Origin: Odiellus spinosus
Taxonomy: Eukaryota; Arthropoda; Arachnida; Opiliones; Phalangiidae
Length of the DNA stretch: 64,000 nt
NCBI GenBank assembly: GCA_963920705.1
Contig: OY987232.1
Coordinates: 3,162,001 to 3,226,000 of the forward strand
Reading direction: 5' to 3'
The translations under genes were made by a program, and so were the position numbers. The first letter of the stretch is position 1. Each line of letters begins with the position of its first letter. Under the pieces are notes generated by a model, which saw only the letters and a program-made list of their open reading frames with translations, was not told the DNA's origin and made no database searches. Of this stretch, positions 30,264-59,443 are shown piece after piece.

Positions 30264-33200
30264 GAATTGGCCATATTTTCCATGTTTTTCAACGGATTTT
30301 CCAAAACTCTTGTTTTTTAGATAGACCAATATTGGCTCTTTCGAACGGTGTTCATTTTGTCTAAATCGCTTAAAAACAAATGTTTTGTGTCCATTTGAAT
30401 CCAATAATCTCTGATTTTTAAGCGTTTTTGCTTAATTTTAACCAATTTTATATTTGTCACGTTTTGGCAATTTAGACAAAACCAAAGTCATTCAAATAAT
30501 GGACAGTCTAAATTATAAGAGTTTTCAAAAATCCGTTTAAAAACAAGAAAAATATGGCCAATTCAAGAAATCATACAATATCAAAATAGTCAAATTTCAG
30601 ATTTTAAAAATTCGATTTTTGATATTAGATGTTTTTTTTTTGAATTGGCCATATTTTCCATGTTTTTCAACGGATTTTCCAAAACTCTTGTTTTTTAGAT
30701 AGACCAATATTGGCTCTTTCGAACGGTGTTCATTTTGTCTAAATCGCATAAAAAACAAATGTTTTGTGTCCATTTGAATCCAATAATCTCTGATTTTTAA
30801 GCGTTTTTGCTTAATTTTAACCAATTTTATATTTGTCACGTTTTGGCAATTTAGACAAAACCAAAGTCATTCGAAAGAGCAAATAATGGACAGTCTAAAT
30901 TATAAGAGTTTTCAAAAATCCGTTTAAAAACAAGAAAAATATGGCCAATTCAAGAAATCATACAATATCAAAATAGTCAAATTTCAGATTTTAAAAATTC
31001 GCTTTTTGATATTAGATGTTTTTTTGAATTGGCCATATTTTCCATGCTTTTACACGTATTTTCAAAAACTCTTGTTTTTTAGATAGACCAATATTTGCTC
31101 TTTCGATTGGTATTGATTTTGTCTAAATCGCTTAAAAATCAAATGTTTTGTGTCCATTTGAATCCAATAATCTTTGATTTTTAACCGTTTTTGCTTATTT
31201 AGCCCATTTTATATTTGTCACGTTGTGGCAATTTAGACAAAACCAAAGTCATTCGAAAGAGCAAATAATGGACAGTCTAAATTATAAGAGTTTTCAAAAA
31301 TCCGTTTAAAAACAAGAAAAATATGACCAATTCAAGAAATCATACAATATCACAATAGACAGATTTCAGATTTTAAAAATTCGCTTTTTGATATTAGATT
31401 TTTTTTTGAATTGGCCATATTTTCCATGCTTTTCAACGGATTTTCCAAAATTCTTGTTTTTTAGATAGACCAATATTTGTTCTTTTGATTGGTGTTGATT
31501 TTGTCTAAATCGCTTAAAAATCAAATGTTTTGTGTCCATTTGAATCCAATAATCTTTGATTTTTAAGCGTTTTTGCTTAATTTTAGCCCATTTTATATTT
31601 GTCACGTTTTGGCAATTTAGACAAAACCAAAGTCATTCGAAAGAGCAAATAATGGACAGTCTAAATAATAAGAGTTTTCAAAAATCCGTTTAAAAACAAG
31701 AAAAATATGGCCAATTCAAGAAATCATACAATATCAAAATAGTCAAATTTCTGATTTTAAAAATTCGATTTTTGATATTAGATGTTTTTTTTGAATTGGC
31801 CATATTTTCCATGTTTTTCAACGGATTTTCCAAAACTCTTGTTTTTTAGATAGACCAATATTGGCTCTTTCGAACGGTGTTCATTTTGTCTAAATCGCTT
31901 AAAAACAAATGTTTTGTGTCCATTTGAATCCAATAATCTCTGATTTTTAAGCGTTTTTGCTTAATTTTAACCAATTTTATATTTGTCACGTTTTGGCAAT
32001 TTAGACAAAACCAAAGTCATTCGAAAGAGCAAATAATGGACAGTCTAAATTATAAGAGTTTTCAAAAATCCGTTTAAAAACAAGAAAAATATGGCCAATT
32101 CAAGAAATCATACAATATCAAAATAGTCAAATTTCAGATTTTAAAAATTCGCTTTTTGATATTAGATGTTTTTTTGAATTGGCCATATTTTCCATGGTTT
32201 TACACGTATTTTCCAAAATTCTTGTTTTTTAGATAGACCAATATTTGTTCTTTTGATTGGTGTTGATTTTGTCTAAATCGCTTAAAAATCAAATGTTTTG
32301 TGTCCATTTGAATCCAATAATCTTTGATTTTTAAGCGTTTTTGCTTAATTTTAGCCCATTTTATATTTGTCACGTTTTGGCAATTTAGACAAAACCAAAG
32401 TCATTCGAAAGAGCAAATAATGGACAGTCTAAATAATAAGAGTTTTCAAAAATCCGTTTAAAAACAAGAAAAATATGGCCAATTCAAGAAATCATACAAT
32501 ATCAAAATAGTCAAATTTCTGATTTTAAAAATTCGATTTTTGATATTAGATGTTTTTTTTGAATTGGCCATATTTTCCATGTTTTTCAACGGATTTTCCT
32601 AAACTCTTGTTTTTTAGATAGACCAATATTGGCTCTTTCGAACGGTGTTCATTTTGTCTAAATCGCTTAAAAACAAATGTTTTGTGTCCATTTGAATCCA
32701 ATAATCTCTGATTTTTAAGCTTTTTGCTTAATTTTAACCAATTTTATATTTGTCACGTTTTGGCAATTTAGACAAAACCAAAGTCATTCGAAAGAGCAAA
32801 TAATGGACAGTCTAAATTATAAGAGTTTTCAAAAATCCGTTTAAAAACAAGAAAAATATGGCCAATTCAAGAAATCATACAATATCAAAATAGTCAAATT
32901 TCAGATTTTAAAAATTCGCTTTTTGATATTAGATGTTTTTTTGAATTGGCCATATTTTCCATGGTTTTACACGTATTTTCAAAAACTCTTGTTTTTTAGA
33001 TAGACCAATATTTGCTCTTTCGATTGGTATTGATTTTGTCTAAATCGCTTAAAAATCAAATGTTTTGTGTCCATTTGAATCCAATAATCTTTGATTTTTA
33101 ACCGTTTTTGCTTATTTAGCCCATTTTATATTTGTCACGTTTTGGCAATTTAGACAAAACCAAAGTCATTCGAAAGAGCAAATAATGGACAGTCTAAATT

Positions 33201-33711
33201 ATAAGAGTTTTCAAAAATCCGTTTAAAAACAAGAAAAATATGGCCAATTCAAGAAATCATACAATATCAAAATAGTCAAATTTCAGATTTTAAAAATTCG
33301 CTTTTTGATATTAGATGTTTTTTTTTTGAATTGGCCATATTTTCCATGTTTTTCAACGGATTTTCCAAAACTCTTGTTTTTTAGATAGACCAATATTGGT
33401 TCTTTCGAACGGTGTTGATTTTGTCTAAATCGCTTAAAAAACAAATGTTTTGTGTCCATTTGAATACAATAATCTCTGATTTTTAAGCGTTTTTGCTTAA
33501 TTTTAACCAATTTTATATTTGTTACGTTTTGGCAATTTATACAAAACCAAAGTCATTCGAAATAGCAAATAATGGACAGTCTAAATTATAAGAGTTTTCA
33601 AAAATCCGTTTAAAAACAAGAAAAATATGGCCAATTCAAGAAATCATACAATATCAAAATAGTCAAATTTCAGATTTTAAAAATTCGCTTTTTGATATTA
33701 GATGTTTTTTT
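30264..33711. repeat. Mosaic of T1, T1'', G, C and chimeric monomers
   Basis: Landmarks at 30264, 30642, 31026, 31408, 31793, 32176, 32561, 32943 and 33328. An 8-base loss gives GTCATTCAAATAATGG at ~30488. The monomer at 32176 is a G-to-C chimera. The one at 33328 is T2 and is followed by the rare GAAATAGC (~33560). Confidence 0.84.
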
Positions 33712-35248
33712 GAATTGGCCATATTTTCCATGTTTTTCCACGGATTTTCCAAAATTCTTGTTTTTTAGATAGACCAATATTTGTTCTTTTGATTGGTGTT
33801 GATTTTGTCTAAATCGCTTAAAAATCAAATGTTTTGTGTCCATTTGAATCCAATAATCTTTGATTTTTAAGCGTTTTTGCTTAATTTTAGCCCATTTTAT
33901 ATTTGTCACGTTTTGGCAATTTAGACAACACTAAAGTCATTCGAAAGAGCAAATAATGGACAGTCTAAATAATAAGAGTTTTCAAAAATCCGTTTAAAAA
34001 CAAGAAAAATATGGCCAATTCAAGAAATCATACAATATCAAAATAGTCAAATTTCAGATTTTAAAAATTCGATTTTTGATATTAGATGTTTTTTTTGAAT
34101 TGGCCATATTTTCCATGTTTTTCAACGGATTTTCCAAAACTCTTGTTTTTTAGATAAACCAATATTGGCTCTTTCGAACGGTGTTCATTTTGTCTAAATC
34201 GCTTAAAAAACAAATGTTTTGTGTCCATTTGAATCCAATAATCTCTGATTTTTAAGCGTTTTTGCTTAATTTTAACCAATTTTATATTTGTCACGTTTTG
34301 GCAATTTAGACAAAACCATAGTCATTCGAAAGAGCAAATAATGGACAGTCTAAATTATATGAGTTTTCAATAATCCGTTTAAAAACAAGAAAAATATGGC
34401 CAATTCAAAAATCATACAATATCAAAATAGTCAAATTTCAGATTTTAAAAATTCGATTTTTGATATTAGATGTTTTTTTTTGAATTGGCCATATTTTCCA
34501 TGTTTTTCAACGGATTTTCCAAAACTCTTGTTTTTAGATAGACCAATACTGGCTCTTTCGAAGGGTGTTCATTTTGTCTAAATCGCATAAAAAACAAATG
34601 TTTTGTGTCCATTTGAATCCAATAATCTCTGATTTTTAAGCGTTTTTGCTTAATTTTAACCAATTTTATATTTGTCACGTTTTGGCAATTTAGACAAAAC
34701 CAAAGTCATTCGAAAGAGCAAATAATGGACAGTCTAAATTATAAGAGTTTTCAAAAATCCGTTTAAAAACAAGAAAAATATGGCCAATTCAAGAAATCAT
34801 ACAATATCAAAATAGTCAAATTTCAGATTTTAAAAATTCGCTTTTTGATATTAGATGTTTTTTTGAATTGGCCATATTTTCCATGGTTTTACACGTATTT
34901 TCAAAAACTCTTGTTTTTTAGATAGACCAATATTTGCTCTTTCGATTGGTATTGATTTTGTCTAAATCGCTTAAAAATCAAATGTTTTGTGTCCATTTGA
35001 ATCCAATAATCTTTGATTTTTAACCGTTTTTGCTTATTTAGCCCATTTTATATTTGTCACGTTTTGGCAATTTAGACAAAACCAAAGTCATTCGAAAGAG
35101 CAAATAGTGGACAGTCTAAATAATAAGAGTTTTCAAAAATCCGTTTAAAAACAAGAAAAATATGGCCAATTCAAGAAATCATACAATATCACAATAGTCA
35201 GATTTCAGATTTTAAAAATTCGCTTTTTGATATTAGATGTTTTTTTTT
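33712..35248. repeat. HOR-beta copy (C, T1', T1''-like, G)
   Basis: Monomers at 33712, 34097, 34482 and 34865; 1537 bp. It shows GATAAACC (~34153), ACCATAGTC (~34315), TCAATAATCCG and CCAATTCAAAAATC. It aligns with 28727-30263 at an offset of about 4985 bp (13 monomers), and together with the preceding T2 monomer it aligns with 59060-60978. Confidence 0.87.
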
Positions 35249-36015
35249 GAATTGGCCATATTTTCCATGTTTTTCAACGGATTTTCCAAAACTCTTGTTT
35301 TTTAGATAGACCAATATTGGTTCTTTCGAACGGTGTTGATTTTGTCTAAATCGCTTAAAAAACAAATGTTTTGTGTCCATTTGAATACAATAATCTCTGA
35401 TTTTTAAGCGTTTTTGCTTAATTTTAACCAATTTTATATTTGTCACGTTTTGGCAATTTATACAAAACCAAAGTCATTCGAAAGAGCAAATAATGGACAG
35501 TCTAAATTATAAGAGTTTTCAAAAATCCGTTTAAAAACAAGAAAAATATGGCCAATTCAAGAAATCATACAATATCAAAATAGTCAAATTTCAGATTTTA
35601 AAAATTCGCTTTTTGATATTAGATGTTTTTTTGAATTGGCCATATTTTCCATGTTTTTCAACGGATTTTCCAAAATTCTTGTTTTTTAGATAGACCAATA
35701 TTTGTTCTTTTGATTGGTGTTGATTTTGTCTAAATCGCTTAAAAACAAATGTTTTGTGTCCATTTGAATCCAATAATCTTTGATTTTTAACCGTTTTTGC
35801 TTAATTTTAACCAATTTTATATTTGTCACGTTTTGGCAATTTAGACAAAACCAAAGTCATTCGAAAGAGCAAATAATGGACAGTCTAAATTATAAGAGTT
35901 TTCAAAAATCCGTTTAAAAACAAGAAAAATATGGCCAATTCAAGAAATCATACAATATCAAAATAGTCAAATTTCAGATTTTAAAAATTCGCTTTTTGAT
36001 ATTAGATGTTTTTTT
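35249..36015. repeat. T2 monomer and C chimera linking two blocks
   Basis: Landmarks at 35249 (T2, GAATACAATAATCTC) and 35633. The second begins as C but from ~35745 reads CGCTTAAAAACAAATG and then TTTTTAACCG, so it is a within-monomer recombinant. Confidence 0.82.
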
Positions 36016-37164
36016 GAATTGGCCATATTTTCCATGGTTTTACACGTATTTTCCAAAACTCTGGTTTTTTAGATAGACCAATATTTGCTCTTTCGATTGG
36101 TGTTGATTTTGTCAAAATCGCTTAAAAATCAAATGTTTTATGTCCATTTGAATCCAATAATCTTTGATTTTTAACCGTTTTTGCTTATTTTAGCCCATTT
36201 TATATTTGTCACGTCTTGGCAATTTAGACAAAATACAAAGTCATTCGAAAGAGCAAATAATGGACAGTCTAAATAATAAGAGTTTTCAAAAATCCGTTTA
36301 AAAACAAGAAAAATATGGCCAATTCAAAAATCATACAATATCAAAATAGTCAAATTTCAGATTTTAAAAATTCGCTTTTTGATATTAGATTTTTTTGAAT
36401 TGGCCATATTTTCCATGCTTTTCAACGGATTTTCCAAAATTCTTGTTTTTTAGATAGACCAATATTTGTTCTTTTGATTGGTGTTGATTTTGTCTAAATC
36501 GCTTAAAAATCAAATGTTTTGTGTCCATTTGAATCCAATAATCTTTGATTTTTAAGCGTTTTTGCTTAATTTTAGCCCATTTTATATTTGTCACGTTTTG
36601 GCAATTTAGACAAAACCAAAGTCATTCGAAAGAGCAAATAATGGACAGTCTAAATAATATGAGTTTTCAAAAATCCGTTTAAAAACAAGAAAAATATGGC
36701 CAATTCAAGAAATCATACAATATCGAAATAGTCAAATTTCTGATTTTAAAAATTCGATTTTTGATATTAGATGTTTTTTTTGAATTGGCCATATTTTCCA
36801 TGTTTTTCAACGGATTTTCCAAAACTCTTGTTTTTTAGATAGACCAATATTAGCTCTTTCGAACGGTGTTCATTTTGTCTAAATCGCTTAAAAACAAATG
36901 TTTTGTGTCCATTTGACTCCAATGATCTCTTATTTTTAAGCGTTTTTGCTTAATTTTAACCAATTTTATATTTGTCACGTTTTGGCAATTTAGACAAAAC
37001 CAAAGTCATTCGAAAGAGCAAATAATGGACAGTCTAAATTATAAGAGTTTTCAAAAATCCGTTTAAAAACAAGAAAAATATGGCCAATTCAAGAAAACAT
37101 ACAATATCAAAATAGTCAAATTTCAGATTTTAAAAATTCGCTTTTTGATATTAGATGTTTTTTT
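36016..37164. repeat. 3-mer HOR, copy 1
   Basis: Monomers at 36016, 36397 and 36782; 1149 bp. Markers are AAAACTCTGGTTTTTTAG (~36055), TTTTATGTCC, CGTCTTGGC plus ACAAAATACAAAG, and a T1 with TTAGCTCTTTCG, TTTGACTCCAATGATC and CTTATTTTTAAGCG. Confidence 0.9.
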
Positions 37165-38313
37165 GAATTGGCCATATTTTCCATGGTTTTACACGTATTT
37201 TCCAAAACTCTGGTTTTTTAGATAGACCAATATTTGCTCTTTCGATTGGTGTTGATTTTGTCAAAATCGCTTAAAAATCAAATGTTTTATGTCCATTTGA
37301 ATCCAATAATCTTTGATTTTTAACCGTTTTTGCTTATTTTAGCCCATTTTATATTTGTCACGTCTTGGCAATTTAGACAAAATACAAAGTCATTCGAAAG
37401 AGCAAATAATGGACAGTCTAAATAATAAGAGTTTTCAAAAATCCGTTTAAAAACAAGAAAAATATGGCCAATTCAAAAATCATACAATATCAAAATAGTC
37501 AAATTTCAGATTTTAAAAATTCGCTTTTTGATATTAGATTTTTTTGAATTGGCCATATTTTCCATGCTTTTCAACGGATTTTCCAAAATTCTTGTTTTTT
37601 AGATAGACCAATATTTGTTCTTTTGATTGGTGTTGATTTTCTCTAAATCGCTTAAAAATCAAATGTTTTGTGTCCATTTGAATCCAATAATCTTTGATTT
37701 TTAAGCGTTTTTGCTTAATTTTAGCCCATTTTATATTTGTCACGTTTTGGCAATTTAGACAAAACCAAAGTCATTCGAAAGAGCAAATAATGGACAGTCT
37801 AAATAATAAGAGTTTTCAAAAATCCGTTTAAAAACAAGAAAAATATGGCCAATTCAAGAAATCATACAATATCAAAATAGTCAAATTTCTGATTTTAAAA
37901 ATTCGATTTTTGATATTAGATGTTTTTTTTGAATTGGCCACATTTTCCATGTTTTTCAACGGATTTTCCAAAACTCTTGTTTTTTAGATAGACCAATATT
38001 AGCTCTTTCGAACGGTGTTCATTTTGTCTAAATCGCTTAAAAACAAATGTTTTGTGTCCATTTGACTCCAATGATCTCTTATTTTTAAGCGTTTTTGCTT
38101 AATTTTAACCAATTTTATATTTGTCACGTTTTGGCAATTTAGACAAAACCAAAGTCATTCGAAAGAGCAAATAATGGACAGTCTAAATTATAAGAGTTTT
38201 CAAAAATCCGTTTAAAAACAAGAAAAATATGGCCAATTCAAGAAAACATACAATATCAAAATAGTCAAATTTCAGATTTTAAAAATTCGCTTTTTGATAT
38301 TAGATGTTTTTTT
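37165..38313. repeat. 3-mer HOR, copy 2
   Basis: Monomers at 37165, 37546 and 37931; 1149 bp. Every marker of copy 1 is repeated at a spacing of about 1149-1150 bp. Private changes include GATTTTCTCTAAATCGC (~37635) and GGCCACATTTTCC (~37936). Confidence 0.9.
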
Positions 38314-40232
38314 GAATTGGCCATATTTTCCATGGTTTTACACGTATTTTCAAAAACTCTTGTTTTTTAGATAGACCAATATTTGCTCTTTCGATTGGTA
38401 TTGATTTTGTCTAAATCGCTTAAAAATCAAATGTTTTGTGTCCATTTGAATCCAATAATCTTTGATTTTTAACCGTTTTTGCTTATTTAGCCCATTTTAT
38501 ATTTGTCACGTTTTGGCAATTTAGACAAAGCCAAAGTCATTCGAAAGAGCAAATAATGGACAGTCTAAATTATAAGAGTTTTCAAAAATCCGTTTAAAAA
38601 CAAGAAAAATATGGCCAATTCAAGAAATCATACAATATCAAAATAGTCAAATTTCAGATTTTAAAAATTCGCTTTTTGATATTAGATGTTTTTTTGAATT
38701 GGCCATATTTTCCATGGTTTTACACGTATTTTCCAAAACTCTTATTTTTTAGATAGACCAATATTTGCTCTTTCGATTGGTGTTGATTTTGTCAAAATCG
38801 CTTAAAAATCAAATGTTTTATGTCCATTTGAATCCAATAATCTTTGATTTTTAACCGTTTTTGCTTATTTTAGCCCATTTTATATTTGTCACGTCTTGGC
38901 AATTTAGACAAAAACCAAAGTCATTCGAAAGAGCAAATAATGGACAGTCTAAATAATAAGAGTTTTCAAAAATCCGTTTAAAAACAAGAAAAATATGGCC
39001 AATTCAAAAATCATACAATATCAAAATAGTCAAATTTCAGATTTTAAAAATTCGCTTTTTGATATTAGATTTTTTTTGAATTGGCCATATTTTCCATGCT
39101 TTTCAACGGATTTTCCAAAATTCTTGTTTTTTAGATAGACCAATATTTGTTCTTTTGATTGGTGTTGATTTTGTCTAAATCGCTTAAAAATCAAATGTTT
39201 TGTGTCCATTTGAATCCAATAATCTTTGATTTTTAAGCGTTTTTGCTTAATTTTAGCCCATTTTATATTTGTCACGTTTTGGCAATTTAGACAAAACCAA
39301 AGTCATTCGAAAGAGCAAATAATGGACAGTCTAAATAATAAGAGTTTTCAAAAATCCGTTTAAAAACAAGAAAAATATGGCCAATTCAAGAAATCATACA
39401 ATATCAAAATAGTCAAATTTCTGATTTTAAAAATTCGATTTTTGATATTAGATGTTTTTTTTTGAATTGGCCATATTTTCCATGTTTTTCAACGGATTTT
39501 CCAAAACTCTTGTTTTTTAGATAGACCAATATTGGCTCTTTCGAACGGTGTTCATTTTGTCTAAATCGCTTAAAAACAAATGTTTTGTGTCCATTTGAAT
39601 CCAATAATCTCTGATTTTTAAGCGTTTTTGCTTAATTTTAACCAATTTTATATTTGTCACGTTTTGGCAATTTAGACAAAACCAAAGTCATTCGAAAGAG
39701 CAAATAATGGACAGTCTAAATTATAAGAGTTTTCAAAAATCCGTTTAAAAACAAGAAAAATATGGCCAATTCAAGAAATCATACAATATCAAAATAGTCA
39801 AATTTCAGATTTTAAAAATTCGCTTTTTGATATTAGATGTTTTTTTGAATTGGCCATATTTTCCATGGTTTTACACGTATTTTCAAAAACTCTTGTTTTT
39901 TAGATAGACCAATATTTGTTCTTTTGATTGGTGTTGATTTTGTCTAAATCGCTTAAAAATCAAATGTTTTGTGTCCAATTGAATCCAATAATCTTTGATT
40001 TTTAAGCGTGTTTGCTTAATTTTAGCCCATTTTATATTTGTCACGTTTTGGCAATTTAGACAAAACCAAAGTCATTCGAAAGAGCAAATAATGGACAGTC
40101 TAAATAATAAGAGTTTTCAAAAATCCGTTTAAAAACAAGAAAAATATGGCCAATTCAAGAAATCATACAATATCACAATAGTCAGATTTCAGATTTTAAA
40201 AATTCGCTTTTTGATATTAGATGTTTTTTTTT
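38314..40232. repeat. Five monomers leading into the alpha HOR
   Basis: Landmarks at 38314 (G), 38696 (CTTATTTTTTAG variant), 39078 (C), 39464 (T1) and 39847 (H). The last two already have the T1 and H form of HOR-alpha, but the G monomer between them is absent. Confidence 0.84.
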
Positions 40233-41486
40233 GAATTGGCCATATTTTCCATGTTTTTCAACGGATTTTCCAAAACTCTTGTTTTTTAGATAGACCAATA
40301 TTGGTTCTTTCGAACGGTGTTGATTTTGTCTAAATCGCTTAAAAAACAAATGTTTTGTGTCCATTTGAATACAATAATCTCTGATTTTTAAGCGTTTTTG
40401 CTTAATTTTAACCAATTTTATATTTGTCACGTTTTGGCAATTTATACAAAACCAAAGTCATTCGAAAGAGCAAATAATGGACAGTCTAAATTATAAGAGT
40501 TTTCAAAAATCCGTTTAAAAACAAGAAAAATATGGCCAATTCAAGAAATCATACAATATCAAAATAGTCAAATTTCTGATTTTAAAAATTCGATTTTTGA
40601 TATTAGATGTTTTTTTTTGAATTGGCCATATTTTCCATGTTTTTCAACGGATTTTCCAAAACTCTTGTTTTTTAGATAGACCAATATTGGCTCTTTCGAA
40701 CGGTGTTCATTTTGTCTAAATCGCTTAAAAACAAATGTTTTGTGTCCATTTGAATCCAATAATCTCTGATTTTTAAGCGTTTTTGCTTAATTTTAACCAA
40801 TTTTATATTTGTCACGTTTTGGCAATTTAGACAAAACCAAAGTCATTCGAAAGAGCAAATAATGGACAGTCTAAATTATAAGAGTTTTCAAAAATCCGTT
40901 TAAAAACAAGAAAAATATGGCCAATTCAAGAAATCATACAATATCAAAATAGTCAAATTTCAGATTTTAAAAATTCGCTTTTTGATATTAGATGTTTTTT
41001 TGAATTGGCCATATTTTCCATGGTTTTACACGTATTTTCAAAAACTCTTGTTTTTTAGATAGACCAATATTTGCTCTTTCGATTGGTATTGATTTTGTCT
41101 AAATCGCTTAAAAATCAAATGTTTTGTGTCCATTTGAATCCAATAATCTTTGATTTTTAACCGTTTTTGCTTATTTAGCCCATTTTATATTTGTCACGTT
41201 TTGGCAATTTAGACAAAACCAAAGTCATTCGAAAGAGCAAATAATGGACAGTCTAAATTATAAGAGTTTTCAAAAATCCGTTTAAAAACAAGAAAAATAT
41301 GGCCAATTCAAGAAATCATACAATATCAAAATAGTCAAATTTCAGATTTTAAAAATTCGCTTTTTGATATTAGATGTTTTTTTGAATTGGCCATATTTTC
41401 CATGGTTTTACACGTATTTTCAAAAACTCTTGTTTTTTAGATAGACCAATATTTGTTCTTTTGATTGGTGTTGATTTTGTCTAAAT

Positions 41487-41545
41487 CGCTTAAAAATCAA
41501 ATGTTTTGTGTCCAATTGAATCCAATAATCTTTGATTTTTAAGCG
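41487..41545. repeat. 59-bp stem-loop with perfect 15-bp arms (representative, C/H subtype)
   Basis: CGCTTAAAAATCAAA at 41487-41501 is the exact reverse complement of TTTGATTTTTAAGCG at 41531-41545, around a 29-base loop. It lies outside the 103-bp arms, in the junction between successive dyads. C monomers keep the perfect stem. G monomers end TTTTTAACCG, with one mismatch. T monomers keep about 10 bp (CGCTTAAAAA / TTTTTAAGCG). Cruciform extrusion is possible but not demonstrated. Confidence 0.9.
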
Positions 41546-41590
41546 TGTTTGCTTAATTTTAGCCCATTTTATATTTGTCACGTTTTGGCA

Positions 41591-41872
41591 ATTTAGACAA
41601 AACCAAAGTCATTCGAAAGAGCAAATAATGGACAGTCTAAATAATAAGAGTTTTCAAAAATCCGTTTAAAAACAAGAAAAATATGGCCAATTCAAGAAAT
41701 CATACAATATCACAATAGTCAGATTTCAGATTTTAAAAATTCGCTTTTTGATATTAGATGTTTTTTTTTGAATTGGCCATATTTTCCATGTTTTTCAACG
41801 GATTTTCCAAAACTCTTGTTTTTTAGATAGACCAATATTGGTTCTTTCGAACGGTGTTGATTTTGTCTAAAT
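41591..41872. repeat. Imperfect inverted repeat forming most of each monomer (representative copy)
   Basis: Left arm 41591-41693 (ATTTAGACAAAACC...GGCCAATTC) and right arm 41770-41872 (GAATTGGCC...TTTTGTCTAAAT) are both 103 bp. Reverse-complementing one and laying it on the other needs no gap and gives 18 mismatches by hand count, about 82% identity. The arms share GGCCATATTTT, TTTTTCAACGG in some copies, AAAACTCTT, CTCTTTCGAA and TTTTGTCTAAAT. A 76-bp spacer separates them, and in most monomers it holds AATATCAAAA and its exact complement TTTTGATATT. The same layout repeats in every monomer I checked, for example 211-488. Confidence 0.93.
41761..41769. repeat. Length-variable T-tract before GAATTGG (representative, T9)
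   Basis: Every monomer has a T run between GATATTAGAT(G) and GAATTGG. Where the G precedes it, length ranges from T6 (54444-54449) to T11 (ending 52529 and 59059). Most 1-3 bp differences between neighbouring monomer lengths come from this tract, as expected for polymerase slippage. Confidence 0.9.
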
Positions 41873-42155
41873 CGCTTAAAAAACAAATGTTTTGTGTCCA
41901 TTTGAATACAATAATCTCTGATTTTTAAGCGTTTTTGCTTAATTTTAACCAATTTTATATTTGTCACGTTTTGGCAATTTATACAAAACCAAAGTCATTC
42001 GAAAGAGCAAATAATGGACAGTCTAAATTATAAGAGTTTTCAAAAATCCGTTTAAAAACAAGAAAAATATGGCCAATTCAAGAAATCATACAATATCAAA
42101 ATAGTCAAATTTCTGATTTTAAAAATTCGATTTTTGATATTAGATGTTTTTTTTT
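41770..42155. repeat. Reference monomer (subtype T2), with its internal parts
   Basis: A typical 386-bp unit read from GAATTGGCC. Parts in order: right inverted arm 41770-41872 (ends TTTTGTCTAAAT); junction from 41873 to about 41977 holding CGCTTAAAAA...TTTTTAAGCG, GCTTAATTTTAACC and the TCACGTTTTGGC box; left inverted arm from about 41978 (here the AATTTATAC variant) to GGCCAATTC; then an AT-rich centre with AATATC, TTTTAAAAATTCG and GATATTAGATG, closed by a T-tract. Hand count: 102 G or C of 386 and nine CpG sites. T2 markers are TTGGTTCTTTCGAACGG, GAATACAATAATCTCTG and AATTTATAC. Confidence 0.93.
41925..41942. repeat. 18-bp mini-hairpin TTAAGC-GTTTTT-GCTTAA
   Basis: A perfect 6-bp palindrome with a 6-base loop. 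It overlaps the right arm of the junction stem-loop, so the two structures are mutually exclusive. It is present in C and T monomers and lost in G monomers, which read AACCG and carry a shortened GCTTATTTAGCCC. Confidence 0.8.
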
Positions 42156-43306
42156 GAATTGGCCATATTTTCCATGTTTTTCAACGGATTTTCCAAAACT
42201 CTTGTTTTTTAGATAGACCAATATTGGCTCTTTCGAACGGTGTTCATTTTGTCTAAATCGCTTAAAAACAAATGTTTTGTGTCCATTTGAATCCAATAAT
42301 CTCTGATTTTTAAGCGTTTTTGCTTAATTTTAACCAATTTTATATTTGTCACGTTTTGGCAATTTAGACAAAACCAAAGTCATTCGAAAGAGCAAATAAT
42401 GGACAGTCTAAATTATAAGAGTTTTCAAAAATCCGTTTAAAAACAAGAAAAATATGGCCAATTCAAGAAATCATACAATATCAAAATAGTCAAATTTCAG
42501 ATTTTAAAAATTCGCTTTTTGATATTAGATGTTTTTTTGAATTGGCCATATTTTCCATGGTTTTACACGTATTTTCAAAAACTCTTGTTTTTTAGATAGA
42601 CCAATATTTGCTCTTTCGATTGGTATTGATTTTGTCTAAATCGCTTAAAAATCAAATGTTTTGTGTCCATTTGAATCCAATAATCTTTGATTTTTAACCG
42701 TTTTTGCTTATTTAGCCCATTTTATATTTGTCACGTTTTGGCAATTTAGACAAAACCAAAGTCATTCGAAAGAGCAAATAATGGACAGTCTAAATTATAA
42801 GAGTTTTCAAAAATCCGTTTAAAAACAAGAAAAATATGGCCAATTCAAGAAATCATACAATATCAAAATAGTCAAATTTCAGATTTTAAAAATTCGCTTT
42901 TTGATATTAGATGTTTTTTTGAATTGGCCATATTTTCCATGGTTTTACACGTATTTTCAAAAACTCTTGTTTTTTAGATAGACCAATATTTGTTCTTTTG
43001 ATTGGTGTTGATTTTGTCTAAATCGCTTAAAAATCAAATGTTTTGTGTCCAATTGAATCCAATAATCTTTGATTTTTAAGCGTGTTTGCTTAATTTTAGC
43101 CCATTTTATATTTGTCACGTTTTGGCAATTTAGACAAAACCAAAGTCATTCGAAAGAGCAAATAATGGACAGTCTAAATAATAAGAGTTTTCAAAAATCC
43201 GTTTAAAAACAAGAAAAATATGGCCAATTCAAGAAATCATACAATATCACAATAGTCAGATTTCAGATTTTAAAAATTCGCTTTTTGATATTAGATGTTT
43301 TTTTTT

Positions 43307-45228
43307 GAATTGGCCATATTTTCCATGTTTTTCAACGGATTTTCCAAAACTCTTGTTTTTTAGATAGACCAATATTGGTTCTTTCGAACGGTGTTGATTT
43401 TGTCTAAATCGCTTAAACAACAAATGTTTTGTGTCCATTTGAATACAATAATCTCTGATTTTTAAGCGTTTTTGCTTAATTTTAACCAATTTTATATTTG
43501 TCACGTTTTGGCAATTTATACAAAACCAAAGTCATTCGAAAGAGCAAATAATGGACAGTCTAAATTATAAGAGTTTTCAAAAATCCGTTTAAAAACAAGA
43601 AAAATATGGCCAATTCAAGAAATCATACAATATCAAAATAGTCAAATTTCAGATTTTAAAAATTCGCTTTTTGATATTAGATGTTTTTTTGAATTGGCCA
43701 TATTTTCCATGTTTTTCAACGGATTTTCCAAAATTCTTGTTTTTTAGATAGACCAATATTTGTTCTTTTGATTGGTGTTGATTTTGTCTAAATCGCTTAA
43801 AAATCAAATGTTTTGTGTCCATTTGAATCCAATAATCTTTGATTTTTAAGCGTTTTTGCTTAATTTTAGCCCATTTTATATTTGTCACGTTTTGGCAATT
43901 TAGACAAAACTAAAGTCATTCGAAAGAGCAAATAATGGACAGTCTAAATAATAAGAGTTTTCAAAAATCCGTTTAAAAACAAGAAAAATATGGCCAATTC
44001 AAGAAATCATACAATATCACAATAGTCAGATTTCAGATTTTAAAAATTCGCTTTTTGATATTAGATGTTTTTTTTTGAATTGGCCATATTTTCCATGTTT
44101 TTCAACGGATTTTCCAAAACTCTTGTTTTTTAGATAGACCAATATTGGTTCTTTCGAACGGTGTTGATTTTGTCTAAATCGCTTAAAAAACAAATGTTTT
44201 GTGTCCATTTGAATACAATAATCTCTGATTTTTAAGCGTTTTTGCTTAATTTTAACCAATTTTATATTTGTCACGTTTTGGCAATTTATACAAAACCAAA
44301 GTCATTCGAAAGAGCAAATAATGGACAGTCTAAATTATAAGAGTTTTCAAAAATCCGTTTAAAAACAAGAAAAATATGGCCAATTCAAGAAATCATACAA
44401 TATCAAAATAGTCAAATTTCAGATTTTAAAAATTCGCTTTTTGATATTAGATGTTTTTTTGAATTGGCCATATTTTCCATGTTTTTCAACGGATTTTCCA
44501 AAATTTCTTGTTTTTTAGATAGACCAATATTGGCTCTTTCGAACGGTGTTCATTTTGTCTAAATCGCTTAAAAACAAATGTTTTGTGTCCATTTGAATCC
44601 AATAATCTCTGATTTTTAAGCGTTTTTGCTTAATTTTAACCAATTTTATATTTGTCACGTTTTGGCAATTTAGACAAAACCAAAGTCATTCGAAAGAGCA
44701 AATAATGGACAGTCTAAATTATAAGAGTTTTCAAAAATCCGTTTAAAAACAAGAAAAATATGGCCAATTTAAGAAATCATACAATATCAAAATAGTCAAA
44801 TTTCAGATTTTAAAAATTCGCTTTTTGATATTAGATGTTTTTTTGAATTGGCCATATTTTCCATGCTTTTACACGTATTTTCAAAAACTCTTGTTTTTTA
44901 GATAGACCAATATTTGCTCTTTCGATTGGTATTGATTTTGTCTAAATCGCTTAAAAATCAAATGTTTTGTGTCCATTTGAATCCAATAATCTTTGATTTT
45001 TAACCGTTTTTGCTTATTTAGCCCATTTTATATTTGTCACGTTGTGGCAATTTAGACAAAACCAAAGTCATTCGAAAGAGCAAATAATGGACAGTCTAAA
45101 TTATAAGAGTTTTCAAAAATCCGTTTAAAAACAAGAAAAATATGGCCAATTCAAGAAATCATACAATATCACAATAGACAGATTTCAGATTTTAAAAATT
45201 CGCTTTTTGATATTAGATGTTTTTTTTT
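43307..45228. repeat. Dimer and chimeric monomers between alpha and beta
   Basis: Landmarks at 43307 (T2 with CTTAAACAACAAATG), 43691 (C), 44077 (T2), 44461 (C-to-T1 chimera with CCAAAATTTCTTG) and 44845 (G'). The C, T2 pair at 43691-44460 (770 bp) is the same dimer as in 61745-63284. The 44845 monomer is followed by CACGTTGTGGC and ACAATAGACAG, a linked pair of variants. Confidence 0.86.
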
Positions 45229-46763
45229 GAATTGGCCATATTTTCCATGCTTTTCAACGGATTTTCCAAAATTCTTGTTTTTTAGATAGACCAATATTTG
45301 TTCTTTTGATTGGTGTTGATTTTGTCTAAATCGCTTAAAAATCAAATGTTTTGTGTCCATTTGAATCCAATAATCTTTGATTTTTAAGCGTTTTTGCTTA
45401 ATTTTAGCCCATTTTATATTTGTCACGTTTTGGCAATTTAGACAAAACTAAAGTCATTCGAAAGAGCAAATAATGGACAGTCTAAATAATAAGAGTTTTC
45501 AAAAATCCGTTTAAAAACAAGAAAAATATGGCCAATTCAAGAAATCATACAATATCAAAATAGTCAAATTTCAGATTTTAAAAATTCGATTTTTGATATT
45601 AGATGTTTTTTTTGAATTGGCCATATTTTCCATGTTTTTCAACGGATTTTCCAAAACTCTTTTTTTAGATAAACCAATATTGGCTCTTTCGAACGGTGTT
45701 CATTTTGTCTAAATCGCTTAAAAAACAAATGTTTTGTGTCCATTTGAATCCAATAATCTCTGATTTTTAAGCGTTTTTGCTTAATTTTAACCAATTTTAT
45801 ATTTGTCACGTTTTGGCAATTTAGACAAAACCATAGTCATTCGAAAGAGCAAATAATGGACAGTCTAAATTATAAGAGTTTTCAATAATCCGTTTAAAAA
45901 CAAGAAAAATATGGCCAATTCAAAAATCATACAATATCAAAATAGTCAAATTTCAGATTTTAAAAATTCGATTTTTGATATTAGATGTTTTTTTTTTGAA
46001 TTGGCCATATTTTCCATGTTTTTCAACGGATTTTCCAAAACTCTTGTTTTTTAGATAGACCAATATTGGCTCTTTCGAACGGTGTTAATTTTGTCTAAAT
46101 CGCTTAAAAACAAATGTTTTGTGTCCATTTGAATCCAATAATCTCTGATTTTTAAGCGTTTTTGCTTAATTTTAACCAATTTTATATTTGTCACGTTTTG
46201 GCAATTTAGACAAAACCAAAGTCATTCGAAAGAGCAAATAATGGACAGTCTAAATTATAAGAGTTTTCAAAAATCCGTTTAAAAACAAGAAAAATATGGC
46301 CAATTCAAGAAATCATACAATATCAAAATAGTCAAATTTCAGATTTTAAAAATTCGCTTTTTGATATTAGATGTTTTTTTGAATTGGCCATATTTTCCAT
46401 GCTTTTACACGTATTTTCAAAAACTCTTGTTTTTTAGATAGACCAATATTTGCTCTTTCGATTGGTATTGATTTTGTCTAAATCGCTTAAAAATCAAATG
46501 TTTTGTGTCCATTTGAATCCAATAATCTTTGATTTTTAACCGTTTTTGCTTATTTAGCCCATTTTATATTTGTCACGTTGTGGCAATTTAGACAAAACCA
46601 AAGTCATTCGAAAGAGCAAATAATGGACAGTCTAAATTATAAGAGTTTTCAAAAATCCGTTTAAAAACAAGAAAAATATGGCCAATTCAAGAAATCATAC
46701 AATATCACAATAGACAGATTTCAGATTTTAAAAATTCGCTTTTTGATATTAGATGTTTTTTTT
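45229..46763. repeat. HOR-beta copy (C, T1', T1, G')
   Basis: Monomers at 45229, 45614, 45998 and 46381; 1535 bp. T1' has a shortened CTCTTTTTTTAGATAAACC (~45658). The third has GTGTTAATTTTG (~46083), shared only with 52530. It is followed by CACGTTGTGGC. Confidence 0.88.
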
Positions 46764-48299
46764 GAATTGGCCATATTTTCCATGCTTTTCAACGGATTTT
46801 CCAAAATTCTTGTTTTTTAGATAGACCAATATTTGTTCTTTTGATTGGTGTTGATTTTGTCTAAATCGCTTAAAAATCAAATGTTTTGTGTCCATTTGAA
46901 TCCAATAATCTTTGATTTTTAAGCGTTTTTGCTTAATTTTAGCCCATTTTATATTTGTCACGTTGTGGCAATTTAGACAAAACCAAAGTCATTCGAAAGA
47001 GCAAATAATGGACAGTCTAAATTATAAGAGTTTTCAAAAATCCGTTTAAAAACAAGAAAAATATGGCCAATTCAAGAAATCATACAATATCACAATAGAC
47101 AGATTTCAGATTTTAAAAATTCGCTTTTTGATATTAGATGTTTTTTTTGAATTGGCCATATTTTCCATGCTTTTCAACGGATTTTCCAAAATTCTTGTTT
47201 TTTAGATAGACCAATATTTGTTCTTTTGATTGGTGTTGATTTTGTCTAAATCGCTTAAAAACAAATGTTTTGTGTCCATTTGAATCCAATAATCTCTGAT
47301 TTTTAAGCGTTTTTGCTTAATTTTAACCAATTTTATATTTGTCACGTTTTGGCAATTTAGACAAAACCAAAGTCATTCGAAAGAGCAAATAATGGACAGT
47401 CTAGATTATAAGAGTTTTCAAAAATCCGTTTAAAAACAAGAAAAATATGGCCAATTCAAGAAATCATACAATATCAAAATAGTCAAATTTCAGATTTTAA
47501 AAATTCGCTTTTTGATATTAGATGTTTTTTTGAATTGGCCATATTTTCCATGGTTTTACACGTATTTTCAAAAACTCTTGTTTTTTAGATAGACCAATAT
47601 TTGCTCTTTCGATTGGTATTGATTTTGTCTAAATCGCTTAAAAATCAAATGTTTTGTGTCCATTTGAATCCAATAATCTTTGATTTTTAACCGTTTTTGC
47701 TTATTTAGCCCATTTTATATTTGTCACGTTTTGGCAATTTAGACAAAACCAAAGTCATTCGAAAGAGCAAATAATGGACAGTCTAAATTATAAGAGTTTT
47801 CAAAAATCCGTTTAAAAACAAGAAAAATATGGCCAATTCAAGAAATCATACAATATCAAAATAGTCAAATTTCAGATTTTAAAAATTCGCTTTTTGATAT
47901 TAGATGTTTTTTTGAATTGGCCATATTTTCCATGGTTTTACACGTATTTTCAAAAACTCTTGTTTTTTAGATAGACCAATATTTGTTCTTTTGATTGGTG
48001 TTGATTTTGTCTAAATCGCTTAAAAATCAAATGTTTTGTGTCCAATTGAATCCAATAATCTTTGATTTTTAAGCGTGTTTGCTTAATTTTAGCCCATTTT
48101 ATATTTGTCACGTTTTGGCAATTTAGACAAAACCAAAGTCATTCGAAAGAGCAAATAATGGACAGTCTAAATAATAAGAGTTTTCAAAAATCCGTTTAAA
48201 AACAAGAAAAATATGGCCAATTCAAGAAATCATACAATATCACAATAGTCAGATTTCAGATTTTAAAAATTCGCTTTTTGATATTAGATGTTTTTTTTT
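46764..48299. repeat. C, C/T1 chimera, G, H
   Basis: Landmarks at 46764, 47149, 47532 and 47914. Both 46764 and 47149 are preceded by the CACGTTGTGGC / ACAATAGACAG pair, so one monomer was duplicated. The 47149 monomer switches from C to T1 inside GATTTTGTCTAAATCGC. The G, H pair opens the second 17-mer unit. Confidence 0.85.
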
Positions 48300-49836
48300 G
48301 AATTGGGCATATTTTCCATGTTTTTCAACGGATTTTCCAAAACTCTTGTTTTTTAGATAGACCAATATTGGTTCTTTCGAACGGTGTTGATTTTGTCTAA
48401 ATCGCTTAAAAAACAAATGTTTTGTGTCCATTTGAATACAATAATCTCTGATTTTTAAGCGTTTTTGCTTAATTTTAACCAATTTTATATTTGTCACGTT
48501 TTGGCAATTTATACAAAACCAAAGTCATTCGAAAGAGCAAATAATGGACAGTCTAAATTATAAGAGTTTTCAAAAATCCGTTTAAAAACAAGAAAAATAT
48601 GGCCAATTCAAGAAATCATACAATATCAAAATAGTCAAATTTCTGATTTTAAAAATTCGATTTTTGATATTAGATGTTTTTTTTTGAATTGGCCATATTT
48701 TCCATGTTTTTCAACGGATTTTCCAAAACTCTTGTTTTTTAGATAGACCAATATTGGCTCTTTCGAACGGTGTTCATTTTGTCTAAATCGCTTAAAAACA
48801 AATGTTTTGTGTCCATTTGAATCCAATAATCTCTGATTTTTAAGCGTTTTTGCTTAATTTTAACCAATTTTATATTTGTCACGTTTTGGCAATTTAGACA
48901 AAACCAAAGTCATTCGAAAGAGCAAATAATGGACAGTCTAAATTATAAGAGTTTTCAAAAATCCGTTTAAAAACAAGAAAAATATGGCCAATTCAAGAAA
49001 TCATACAATATCAAAATAGTCAAATTTCAGATTTTAAAAATTCGCTTTTTGATATTAGATGTTTTTTTGAATTGGCCATATTTTCCATGGTTTTACACGT
49101 ATTTTCAAAAACTCTTGTTTTTTAGATAGACCAATATTTGCTCTTTCGATTGGTATTGATTTTGTCTAAATCGCTTAAAAATCAAATGTTTTGTGTCCAT
49201 TTGAATCCAATAATCTTTGATTTTTAACCGTTTTTGCTTATTTAGCCCATTTTATATTTGTCACGTTTTGGCAATTTAGACAAAACCAAAGTCATTCGAA
49301 AGAGCAAATAATGGACAGTCTAAATTATAAGAGTTTTCAAAAATCCGTTTAAAAACAAGAAAAATATGGCCAATTCAAGAAATCATACAATATCAAAATA
49401 GTCAAATTTCAGATTTTAAAAATTCGCTTTTTGATATTAGATGTTTTTTTGAATTGGCCATATTTTCCATGGTTTTACACGTATTTTCAAAAACTCTTGT
49501 TTTTTAGATAGACCAATATTTGTTCTTTTGATTGGTGTTGATTTTGTCTAAATCGCTTAAAAATCAAATGTTTTGTGTCCAATTGAATCCAATAATCTTT
49601 GATTTTTAAGCGTGTTTGCTTAATTTTAGCCCATTTTATATTTGTCACGTTTTGGCAATTTAGACAAAACCAAAGTCATTCGAAAGAGCAAATAATGGAC
49701 AGTCTAAATAATAAGAGTTTTCAAAAATCCGTTTAAAAACAAGAAAAATATGGCCAATTCAAGAAATCATACAATATCACAATAGTCAGATTTCAGATTT
49801 TAAAAATTCGCTTTTTGATATTAGATGTTTTTTTTT
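48300..49836. repeat. HOR-alpha copy 3 (T2, T1, G, H)
   Basis: Monomers at 48300, 48686, 49069 and 49451; 1537 bp. The landmark at 48300 is GAATTGGGCAT, a private change in the dyad core. Otherwise it matches copies 1 and 2. Confidence 0.91.
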
Positions 49837-51757
49837 GAATTGGCCATATTTTCCATGTTTTTCAACGGATTTTCCAAAACTCTTGTTTTTTAGATAGACC
49901 AATATTGGTTCTTTCGAACGGTGTTGATTTTGTCTAAATCGCTTAAAAAACAAATGTTTTGTGTCCATTTGAATACAATAATCTCTGATTTTTAAGCGTT
50001 TTTGCTTAATTTTAACCAATTTTATATTTGTCACGTTTTGGCAATTTATACAAAACCAAAGTCATTCGAAAGAGCAAATAATGGACAGTCTAAATTATAA
50101 GAGTTTTCAAAAATCCGTTTAAAAACAAGAAAAATATGGCCAATTCAAGAAATCATACAATATCAAAATAGTCAAATTTCAGATTTTAAAAATTCGCTTT
50201 TTGATATTAGATGTTTTTTTGAATTGGCCATATTTTCCATGTTTTTCAACGGATTTTCCAAAATTCTTGTTTTTTAGATAGACCAATATTTTTTCTTTTG
50301 ATTGGTGTTGATTTTGTCTAAATCGCTTAAAAATCAAATGTTTTGTGTCCATTTGAATCCAATAATCTTTGATTTTTAAGCGTTTTTGCTTAATTTTAGC
50401 CCATTTTATATTTGTCACGTTTTGGCAATTTAGACAAAACTAAAGTCATTCGAAAGAGCAAATAATGGACAGTCTAAATAATAAGAGTTTTCAAAAATCC
50501 GTTTAAAAACAAGAAAAATATGGCCAATTCAAGAAATCATACAATATCAAAATAGTCAAATTTCAGATTTTAAAAATTCGATTTTTGATATTAGATGTTT
50601 TTTTTGAATTGGCCATATTTTCCATGTTTTTCAACGGATTTTCCAAAACTCTTGTTTTTTAGATAAACCAATATTGGCTCTTTCGAACGGTGTTCATTTT
50701 GTCTAAATCGCTTAAAAAACAAATGTTTTGTGTCCATTTGAATCCAATAATCTCTGATTTTTAAGCGTTTTTGCTTAATTTTAACCAATTTTATATTTGT
50801 CACGTTTTGGCAATTTAGACAAAACCATAGTCATTCGAAAGAGCAAATAATGGACAGTCTAAATTATAAGAGTTTTCATTAATCCGTTTAAAAACAAGAA
50901 AAATATGGCCAATTCAAAAATCATACAATATCAAAATAGTCAAATTTCAGATTTTAAAAATTCGATTTTTGATATTAGATGTTTTTTTTTGAATTGGCCA
51001 TATTTTCCATGTTTTTCAACGGATTTTCCAAAATTTCTTGTTTTTTAGATAGACCAATATTGGCTCTTTCGAACGGTGTTCATTTTGTCTAAATCGCTTA
51101 AAAACAAATGTTTTGTGTCCATTTGAATCCAATAATCTCTGATTTTTAAGCGTTTTTGCTTAATTTTAACCAATTTTATATTTGTCACGTTTTGGCAATT
51201 TAGACAAAACCAAAGTCATTCGAAAGAGCAAATAATGGACAGTCTAAATTATAAGAGTTTTCAAAAATCCGTTTAAAAACAAGAAAAATATGGCCAATTC
51301 AAGAAATCATACAATATCAAAATAGTCAAATTTCAGATTTTAAAAATTCGCTTTTTGATATTAGATGTTTTTTTGAATTGGCCATATTTTCCATGCTTTT
51401 ACACGTATTTTCAAAAACTCTTGTTTTTTAGATAGACCAATATTTGCTCTTTCGATTGGTATTGATTTTGTCTAAATCGCTTAAAAATCAAATGTTTTGT
51501 GTCCATTTGAATCCAATAATCTTTGATTTTTAACCGTTTTTGCTTATTTAGCCCATTTTATATTTGTCACGTTGTGGCAATTTAGACAAAACCAAAGTCA
51601 TTCGAAAGAGCAAATAATGGACAGTCTAAATTATAAGAGTTTTCAAAAATCCGTTTAAAAACAAGAAAAATATGGCCAATTCAAGAAATCATACAATATC
51701 ACAATAGACAGATTTCAGATTTTAAAAATTCGCTTTTTGATATTAGATGTTTTTTTT
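49837..51757. repeat. T2, C, T1', C/T1 chimera, G'
   Basis: Landmarks at 49837, 50221, 50606, 50991 and 51375. This matches 43307-45228 except that the third monomer is T1' (GATAAACC, ACCATAGTC) instead of T2. The chimera with CCAAAATTTCTTG is at 50991. TTTTCATTAATCCG at ~50876 is a private form of TTTTCAATAATCCG. Confidence 0.87.
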
Positions 51758-53295
51758 GAATTGGCCATATTTTCCATGCTTTTCAACGGATTTTCCAAAA
51801 TTCTTGTTTTTTAGATAGACCAATATTTGTTCTTTTGATTGGTGTTGATTTTGTCTAAATCGCTTAAAAATCAAATGTTTTGTGTCCATTTGAATCCAAT
51901 AATCTTTGATTTTTAAGCGTTTTTGCTTAATTTTAGCCCATTTTATATTTGTCACGTTTTGGCAATTTAGACAAAACTAAAGTCATTCGAAAGAGCAAAT
52001 AATGGACAGTCTAAATAATAAGAGTTTTCAAAAATCCGTTTAAAAACAAGAAAAATATGGCCAATTCAAGAAATCATACAATATCAAAATAGTCAAATTT
52101 CAGATTTTAAAAATTCGATTTTTGATATTAGATGTTTTTTTTGAATTGGCCATATTTTCCATGTTTTTCAACGGATTTTCCAAAACTCTTTTTTTTTAGA
52201 TAAACCAATATTGGCTCTTTCGAACGGTGTTCATTTTGTCTAAATCGCTTAAAAAACAAATGTTTTGTGTCCATTTGAATCCAATAATCTCTGATTTTTA
52301 AGCGTTTTTGCTTAATTTTAACCAATTTTATATTTGTCACGTTTTGGCAATTTAGACAAAACCATAGTCATTCGAAAGAGCAAATAATGGACAGTCTAAA
52401 TTATAAGAGTTTTCAATAATCCGTTTAAAAACAAGAAAAATATGGCCAATTCAAAAATCATACAATATCAAAATAGTCAAATTTCAGATTTTAAAAATTC
52501 GATTTTTGATATTAGATGTTTTTTTTTTTGAATTGGCCATATTTTCCATGTTTTTCAACGGATTTTCCAAAACTCTTGTTTTTTAGATAGACCAATATTG
52601 GCTCTTTCGAACGGTGTTAATTTTGTCTAAATCGCTTAAAAACAAATGTTTTGTGTCCATTTGAATCCAATAATCTCTGATTTTTAAGCGTTTTTGCTTA
52701 ATTTTAACCAATTTTATATTTGTCACGTTTTGGCAATTTAGACAAAACCAAAGTCATTCGAAAGAGCAAATAATGGACAGTCTAAATTATAAGAGTTTTC
52801 AAAAATCCGTTTAAAAACAAGAAAAATATGGCCAATTCAAGAAATCATACAATATCAAAATAGTCAAATTTCAGATTTTAAAAATTCGCTTTTTGATATT
52901 AGATGTTTTTTTGAATTGGCCATATTTTCCATGCTTTTACACGTATTTTCAAAAACTCTTGTTTTTTAGATAGACCAATATTTGCTCTTTCGATTGGTAT
53001 TGATTTTGTCTAAATCGCTTAAAAATCAAATGTTTTGTGTCCATTTGAATCCAATAATCTTTGATTTTTAACCGTTTTTGCTTATTTAGCCCATTTTATA
53101 TTTGTCACGTTGTGGCAATTTAGACAAAACCAAAGTCATTCGAAAGAGCAAATAATGGACAGTCTAAATTATAAGAGTTTTCAAAAATCCGTTTAAAAAC
53201 AAGAAAAATATGGCCAATTCAAGAAATCATACAATATCACAATAGACAGATTTCAGATTTTAAAAATTCGCTTTTTGATATTAGATGTTTTTTTT
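51758..53295. repeat. HOR-beta copy (C, T1', T1, G')
   Basis: Monomers at 51758, 52143, 52530 and 52913; 1538 bp. It shares CTCTTTTTTTTTAGATAAACC-type spacing in T1' and GTGTTAATTTTG with 45229-46763. The monomer at 52530 has one of the longest T-tracts, T11. Confidence 0.9.
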
Positions 53296-58671: not shown

Positions 58672-59443
58672 GCATTGGCCATATTTTCCATGTTTTTCAA
58701 CGGATTTTCCAAAATCCTTGTTTTTTAGATAGACCAATATTTGTTCTTTTGATTGGTGTTGATTTTGTCTAAATCGCTTAAAAATCAAATGTTTTGTGTC
58801 CAATTGAATCCAATAATCTTTGATTTTTAAGCGTTTTTGCTTAATTTTAGCCCATTTTATATTTGTCACGTTTTGGCAATTTAGACAAAACCAAAGTCAT
58901 TCGAAAGAGCAAATAATGGACAGTCTAAATAATAAGAGTTTTCAAAAATCCGTTTAAAAACAAGAAAAATATGGCCAATTCAAGAAATTATACAATATCA
59001 CAATAGTCAGATTTCAGATTTTAAAAATTCGCTTTTTGATATTAGATGTTTTTTTTTTTGAATTGGCCATATTTTCCATGTTTTTCAACGGATTTTCCAA
59101 AACTCTTGTTTTTTAGATAGACCAATATTGGTTCTTTCGAACGGTGTTGATTTTGTCTAAATCGCTTAAAAAACAAATGTTTTGTGTCCATTTGAATACA
59201 ATAATCTCTGATTTTTAAGCGTTTTTGCTTAATTTTAACCAATTTTATATTTGTCACGTTTTGGCAATTTATACAAAACCAAAGTCATTCGAAATAGCAA
59301 ATAATGGACAGTCTAAATTATAAGAGTTTTCAAAAATCCGTTTAAAAACAAGAAAAATATGGCCAATTCAAGAAATCATACAATATCAAAATAGTCAAAT
59401 TTCAGATTTTAAAAATTCGCTTTTTGATATTAGATGTTTTTTT
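58672..59443. repeat. GCATTGGCC C monomer followed by T2
   Basis: Landmarks at 58672 (third consecutive GCATTGGCC unit start) and 59060 (T2, T11 tract). After T2 comes GAAATAGC (~59293), otherwise seen only at ~33560. Confidence 0.86.

What the first reader, a model, noticed from the sequence alone, without database searches (positions are those of the whole stretch)
41591..41872. Each satellite monomer is an inverted dimer with 103-bp arms
In a representative monomer the left arm 41591-41693 and right arm 41770-41872 are reverse complements at 85 of 103 positions, with no gap. The same layout fits 211-488 and the other monomers I checked. A satellite built from opposed half-units, with ~160 potential large hairpins in 64 kb, is uncommon. 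From established knowledge, dyad symmetry and non-B DNA have been linked to centromeres whose satellites lack CENP-B boxes. A centromere role here is inference.
Basis: partly seen in the sequence, partly recalled or inferred. Interest (0 to 1): 0.85.

Follow-up and report, generated by a model that had tools for sequence, protein, structure and literature searches.

The report
Satellite repeat with built-in inverted halves
A long run of tandem repeats, probably from a eukaryote that could not be identified, in which every complete repeat carries two mirror-image halves; the symmetry is real but looks like a relic of how the repeat was born rather than a structure now kept by selection.

Summary
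The window is one head-to-tail array of an AT-rich satellite (27% GC, period 384, 166.9 copies). In the cited monomer the arms 41591-41693 and 41770-41872 are reverse complements at 85 of 103 positions (1000 shuffles: mean 33.7, max 46). All 166 complete monomers keep the arms (66-85 of 103 aligned pairs). The dyad is larger than reported: with two single-base gaps it reaches the axis, 113 of 139 consensus pairs matching. A small second dyad follows.

The centromere/non-B reading is not supported by the sequence. Common variants break pairs as often as chance predicts (33 of 42, null 33.3). Arms differ by 18.7%, monomers by 4.8%, and no two-site arm-to-arm conversion was seen, so the inversion predates the array. 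A rough model at sigma -0.06 puts cruciform cost above relief at most sizes. I read it as a satellite born by inverted duplication and then amplified. Such satellites are known (Tribolium brevicornis, TmSat2, Trichogramma brassicae 385 bp). The species is unknown: no genome is held, and the viral, phage and plasmid searches found no relative.

The parts
1..64000 (+). single head-to-tail satellite array, period 384 bp, about 167 copies, one orientation throughout
   Evidence: TRF 166.9 copies, 94% matches; 34,353 forward and 0 reverse-only consensus 25-mers; mean pairwise identity of 166 complete monomers 95.2%
41591..41693 (+). left arm of the major dyad in the cited monomer
   Evidence: 85 of 103 complementary to 41770-41872
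41694..41769 (.). inner segment; in the consensus the arms continue through it to the axis with two single-base gaps; GC 0.19 in the consensus
41770..41872 (-). right arm of the major dyad
   Evidence: single-strand DNA fold of 41591-41872 -68.1 kcal/mol, z -12.1, 0 of 200 shuffles as good
41873..41931 (.). minor dyad (consensus stems of 15 bp, about 29-bp loop); stems imperfect in this copy
   Evidence: both stems exact at 37 places in the window
41932..41976 (.). rest of the monomer, no clear symmetry
   Evidence: read
23211..23941 (+). two monomers with the largest lesion in the array: about 33-34 bp missing at the outer end of a left arm at their junction

Best explanation
A satellite whose 384-bp monomer arose when a half-unit of about 140 bp was duplicated in inverted orientation next to about 100 bp of other AT-rich DNA. 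The composite then amplified head to tail and is homogenised between monomers in direct register (unequal exchange or conversion). The two arms of a monomer are not homogenised with each other, so they drift apart while each stays uniform across the array. The dyad is a fossil of the birth of the monomer. It can fold when single-stranded or transcribed, but nothing here shows that folding is selected. Shown: the dyad, its presence in all complete monomers, one orientation, arm divergence above monomer divergence, no clear selection on pairs. Inferred: the order of events, the exchange mechanism, and that it lacks a function.
For: Arms differ at 18.7% of pairs, monomers at 4.8% (gaps counted). 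At 26 arm-diagnostic sites no monomer of 166 has two neighbouring sites of one arm switched to the other arm's state. Of 42 minor alleles in 5 or more monomers at paired columns, 33 break a pair, 6 restore one, 3 neither; null 33.3 and 3.4. At 2 or more monomers: 69, 9 and 12 of 90; null 71.1 and 7.1. One orientation. No coding signal: arm differences by codon position 6/6/5 in the one frame tested.
Against: At 17 or more monomers 4 of 22 alleles restore pairs, null 1.55, P 0.066. Cis arms pair slightly better than trans, P 0.027, effect 0.06 of 139 pairs. Conservation of left and right partner columns correlates weakly, Spearman 0.17, P 0.04. These hints are small and not corrected for several tests, but weak constraint on the half-unit or on pairing is not excluded. 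One array of one genome cannot show constraint across species.
Confidence: 0.62

Rival explanations
1. Functional non-B DNA: the dyads extrude hairpins or cruciforms that help place CENP-A, as proposed for centromeres rich in dyad symmetry.
For: Strong single-strand fold (z -12.1; two monomers z -15.4 on 20 shuffles), AT-rich tip, present in 166 of 166 monomers. No exact CENP-B box in the consensus: best 7 of 9 fixed positions (motif recalled, chance level not computed).
Against: Pairs not clearly maintained. Rough model at sigma -0.06 with one cruciform per domain: cost exceeds relief at 9 of 9 radii in a 5-kb domain and 8 of 9 in a 10-kb domain; at radius 75 in 10 kb the relief is just larger (92.4 against 91.1), and at radius 90 the gap is 3.4; an artificial perfect palindrome of 280 bp costs 16. 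Larger domains or stronger supercoiling were not modelled. No evidence on chromosomal place.
Confidence: 0.13
2. Hairpin-RNA source: transcripts of either strand fold into a long imperfect stem that Dicer-type enzymes cut into small RNAs, feeding heterochromatin.
For: RNA fold of 41591-41872, + strand, -109.7 kcal/mol, z -15.7, 0 of 200 shuffles as good. Inverted arms make this possible from either strand (inference).
Against: No transcription data. Same lack of clear pair maintenance. No Rfam match in 41001-44000.
Confidence: 0.1
3. The half-units are binding or nucleosome-length modules (384 = 2 x 192): two opposed copies of a site bound by a dimeric protein, or two phased nucleosomes.
For: The period is twice 192 bp. 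The shared motif ATATGGCCAATTC occurs 160 times and its reverse complement 149 times in the window. The strongest WW period was 11.0 bp (not tested against shuffles).
Against: No AA/TT or WW power at 9.8-10.8 bp above 500 base shuffles (P 0.60 and 0.75). The axes of the two dyads are about 169 bp apart, not 192. No factor is known.
Confidence: 0.1
4. The dyad is a tandemised foldback or MITE-type element whose terminal inverted repeats are the arms.
For: Long inverted arms; [quoted passage not shown]
Against: The four bases at the outer arm ends differ (GGCA before, CGCT after), so no target-site duplication is visible at these ends; other ends were not tested. No element sequence was compared.
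Confidence: 0.05

Closest known systems
Trichogramma brassicae 385-bp satellite (Landais et al. 2000; seen only as cited in passages of PMC13081366 and PMC8122249)
   Same: nearly the same period (385 against 384) and 80-bp inverted repeats in the monomer
   Different: sequence not available to me, so kinship is untested; arms here are 103 bp and extend to about 139 pairs with gaps
Tribolium brevicornis 1061-bp satellite (Mravinac et al. 2005; seen only as cited)
   Same: monomer with long inverted segments
   Different: segments of about 470 bp and a period nearly three times longer
Tribolium madens TmSat2 (PMC13081366, abstract, passages and the probe section)
   Same: large imperfect dyad within each monomer
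   Different: 704-bp monomer, ~300-bp inverted repeats, built from a ~110-bp unit, in arrays that change orientation (macro-dyads); here no change in 64 kb
TCAST of Tribolium castaneum
   Same: insect satellite of roughly similar period (recalled, no call)
   Different: two published probe primers (PMC7598501, passages) match the consensus here at best with 8-9 mismatches of 20

Membership tests
satellite DNA | long head-to-tail array of homogeneous noncoding monomers | tested here: met
   codon positions 6/6/5; of 5 ORFs of 40 aa or more listed in 41000-42600 the longest, 82 aa, had two Pfam matches, both below cut-off (17.4 and 14.3 bits against 27)
satellites with inversely oriented subunits in the monomer | long inverted arms in the monomers | tested here: met
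   166 of 166 complete monomers
Tribolium-type macro-dyad arrays | multi-kb subarrays in opposite orientation | tested here: not met
   no reverse-only 25-mer in this window; a change of orientation outside the window is possible
Trichogramma brassicae 385-bp satellite | sequence homology | not testable with these tools
   sequence not found; only period and arm length compared
TCAST | sequence homology | tested here: not met
   two probe primers absent; a test with primers only
centromeric satellite | CENP-A/CENH3 occupancy | not testable with these tools
   no chromatin data, species unknown
centromeric satellite with CENP-B box | NTTCGNNNNANNCGGGN (recalled) | tested here: not met
   best match has 2 mismatches at 9 fixed positions of the consensus; individual monomers not scanned, chance level not computed

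The most novel reading that the evidence does not exclude
A centromeric satellite in which each 384-bp monomer presents two opposed half-units, so that every monomer can seed a hairpin-marked CENP-A site, with the shape tolerated at about 80% pairing rather than perfected.
Probability: 0.1. Interest if true: 0.65.

Novelty: new member of a known kind. Interest (0 to 1): 0.33.

Why it matters
Long inverted arms inside satellite monomers are reported as uncommon and have been tied to ideas about centromeres. An array with 166 complete copies lets one ask whether pairing is under selection, and here no clear selection is seen. That warns against reading dyads in satellites as functional by default. 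If the arms did turn out to sit on CENP-A sites, the array would be a good test of the shape hypothesis.

Tried and rejected
Looking for relatives: own-genome search not possible (none held). Three exact patterns of 21, 25 and 22 bases in viral contigs, 0 hits each. Phages and plasmids, distant blastn of one monomer, no match. A blastn of the doubled consensus against the fetched loci gave hits in three loci of 25-43 bp, all covering the part of the consensus that holds the search pattern (L004, L030, L108). That scan is uninformative and was my error.

Literature: nine sequence fragments, no paper. '384 bp' with 'satellite DNA' and 'inverted repeat': one paper, on a plant mitochondrial genome by its title. 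Trichogramma satellite: no paper with its sequence seen in the listings. Wider searches for dyads and inverted subunits led to the papers cited. PMC13427858 was checked by term search only and held nothing useful. Kasinathan and Henikoff 2018 is not held.

Rejected: protein-coding remnant; known RNA family (0 matches in the 3000 bases given); internal direct repeat (best score 9.0, below the null mean 11.1 of 40 shuffles); arm-to-arm conversion of two or more neighbouring sites; clear higher-order repeats; helical phasing at 9.8-10.8 bp. Region limits printed for the inner, right-arm and outer parts were about 2 bp off, because the consensus T-run is shorter than in the cited monomer; one search gives corrected values. 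The query 41591-41974 is 2 bp short of the cited monomer, which runs to 41976.

Full report
Observation. The window is a single satellite array: TRF reports period 384, 166.9 copies over 1-64000, with GC between 26.5 and 27.4% in every 2-kb step. The cited arms match at 85 of 103 positions without a gap; 1000 dinucleotide shuffles reached at most 46. The wider control, the best inverted alignment anywhere in the consensus monomer, scored 283 against a maximum of 68 in 500 shuffles. I cut the array into 166 complete monomers (lengths 379-388 and one of 350); the partial ends were left out. All 166 keep the arms, 66-85 of 103 aligned pairs.

Anatomy. The consensus monomer is 384 bp. Its major dyad covers about positions 1-280. 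Beyond the 103-bp arms the symmetry continues to the axis with two single-base gaps, 113 of 139 pairs. A minor dyad of about 59 bp follows, with 15-bp stems in the consensus; both stems are exact together at 37 places. About 45 bp show no clear symmetry. A global inverted alignment of the two 192-bp halves matches at 141 of 199 columns, mostly in the major dyad. There is no significant internal direct repeat.

Folding. As single-stranded DNA the cited 282 bases fold at -68.1 kcal/mol, z -12.1; as RNA at -109.7, z -15.7. A 768-base stretch folds with a separate large hairpin in each monomer, z -15.4 on 20 shuffles. Extrusion from duplex DNA is another matter. At radius 75 in 10 kb the relief was just larger (92.4 against 91.1) and at radius 90 it fell short by 3.4. 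The minor dyad was unfavourable at both radii tried (50.5 against 40.1 at the larger, 10-kb domain). The model is crude. I infer that many such cruciforms side by side are unlikely, not that none forms; larger domains and stronger supercoiling were not modelled.

Is pairing selected? Among 42 minor alleles present in at least 5 monomers at paired columns, 33 break, 6 restore and 3 do neither; placing the same changes at random columns with the same base gives 33.3 and 3.4. With a threshold of 2 monomers the figures are 69, 9 and 12 of 90 (null 71.1 and 7.1). With 17 they are 16, 4 and 2 of 22 (null 17.4 and 1.6; P for restoring 0.066). At the nine pairs where both columns vary in more than 3% of monomers, correlations lie between -0.15 and 0.26. 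Arms of one monomer pair with each other 0.06 pairs better than arms of different monomers, P 0.027. Conservation of partner columns correlates weakly, Spearman 0.17, P 0.04. Taken together I see no clear maintenance of the hairpin, with small hints the other way that were not corrected for multiple tests.

History. Arms differ at 18.7% of pairs, monomers at 4.8%. At 26 sites that distinguish the arms, 226 of 8632 arm-site states are of the other arm's type (136 of 4316 and 90 of 4316). Of these, 209 fall at five columns, and no monomer has two neighbouring sites switched in the same arm. So homogenisation works between monomers and not visibly between arms, and the inverted duplication most likely came first. 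Left arm and inner part are more uniform (98.1% and 98.4%) than the right arm (94.9%), the minor dyad (96.9%) and the rest (95.9%). Linked variants at positions 199-359 show haplotype blocks; I read the difference as array history and did not test it. There is no reverse-oriented monomer. Identity by lag rises slightly at lags 4, 7 and 17 (0.9605, 0.9585, 0.9573 against about 0.953), and lag 4 leads among pairs of 99.5% identity or more, 27 pairs: a hint of short higher-order repeats at most.

Comparison. Long dyads within satellite monomers are called 'not so common', with the Trichogramma brassicae 385-bp satellite (80-bp inverted repeats), T. brevicornis (1061 bp, ~470 bp) and TmSat2 (704 bp, ~300 bp) as examples (PMC13081366, abstract and passages). 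A review lists insect satellites with predicted dyad or cruciform structures and mentions nucleosome positioning and recognition of cruciforms by HJURP (PMC8122249, passages). This array is of that kind by structure. The near-equal period to the T. brassicae satellite is a lead, not a test. TCAST is excluded only as far as two primers can exclude it. Fragment searches and a search for a 384-bp satellite with inverted repeats found no printed description in the library; most subscription papers are missing from it, so a description may exist.

Verdict. The centromere reading stays an untested possibility that the sequence evidence does not favour.

Noticed in passing
window 23211-23941: About 33-34 bp missing at a monomer junction (one 350-bp monomer), joining GGCA to AATAATGG; a GCAA microhomology is visible at the join by eye.
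   Followed up: partly
consensus positions 199-359 of the monomer, whole array: Common variants fall in tightly linked blocks (for example 248/259/260/291/326, r 0.82-0.96), pointing to a few recombining haplotypes.
   Followed up: partly
T-run of the inner segment, e.g. 41761-41769: This homopolymer is the most frequent site of length change between monomers, with a few other short-indel sites (consensus 291, 350, 106, 227).
   Followed up: partly
consensus positions 78-102 and 139-153: Most uniform stretches of the monomer (15-mers exact in 96.4-99.4% of monomers), one of them at the tip of the major dyad; could be binding sites.
   Followed up: no
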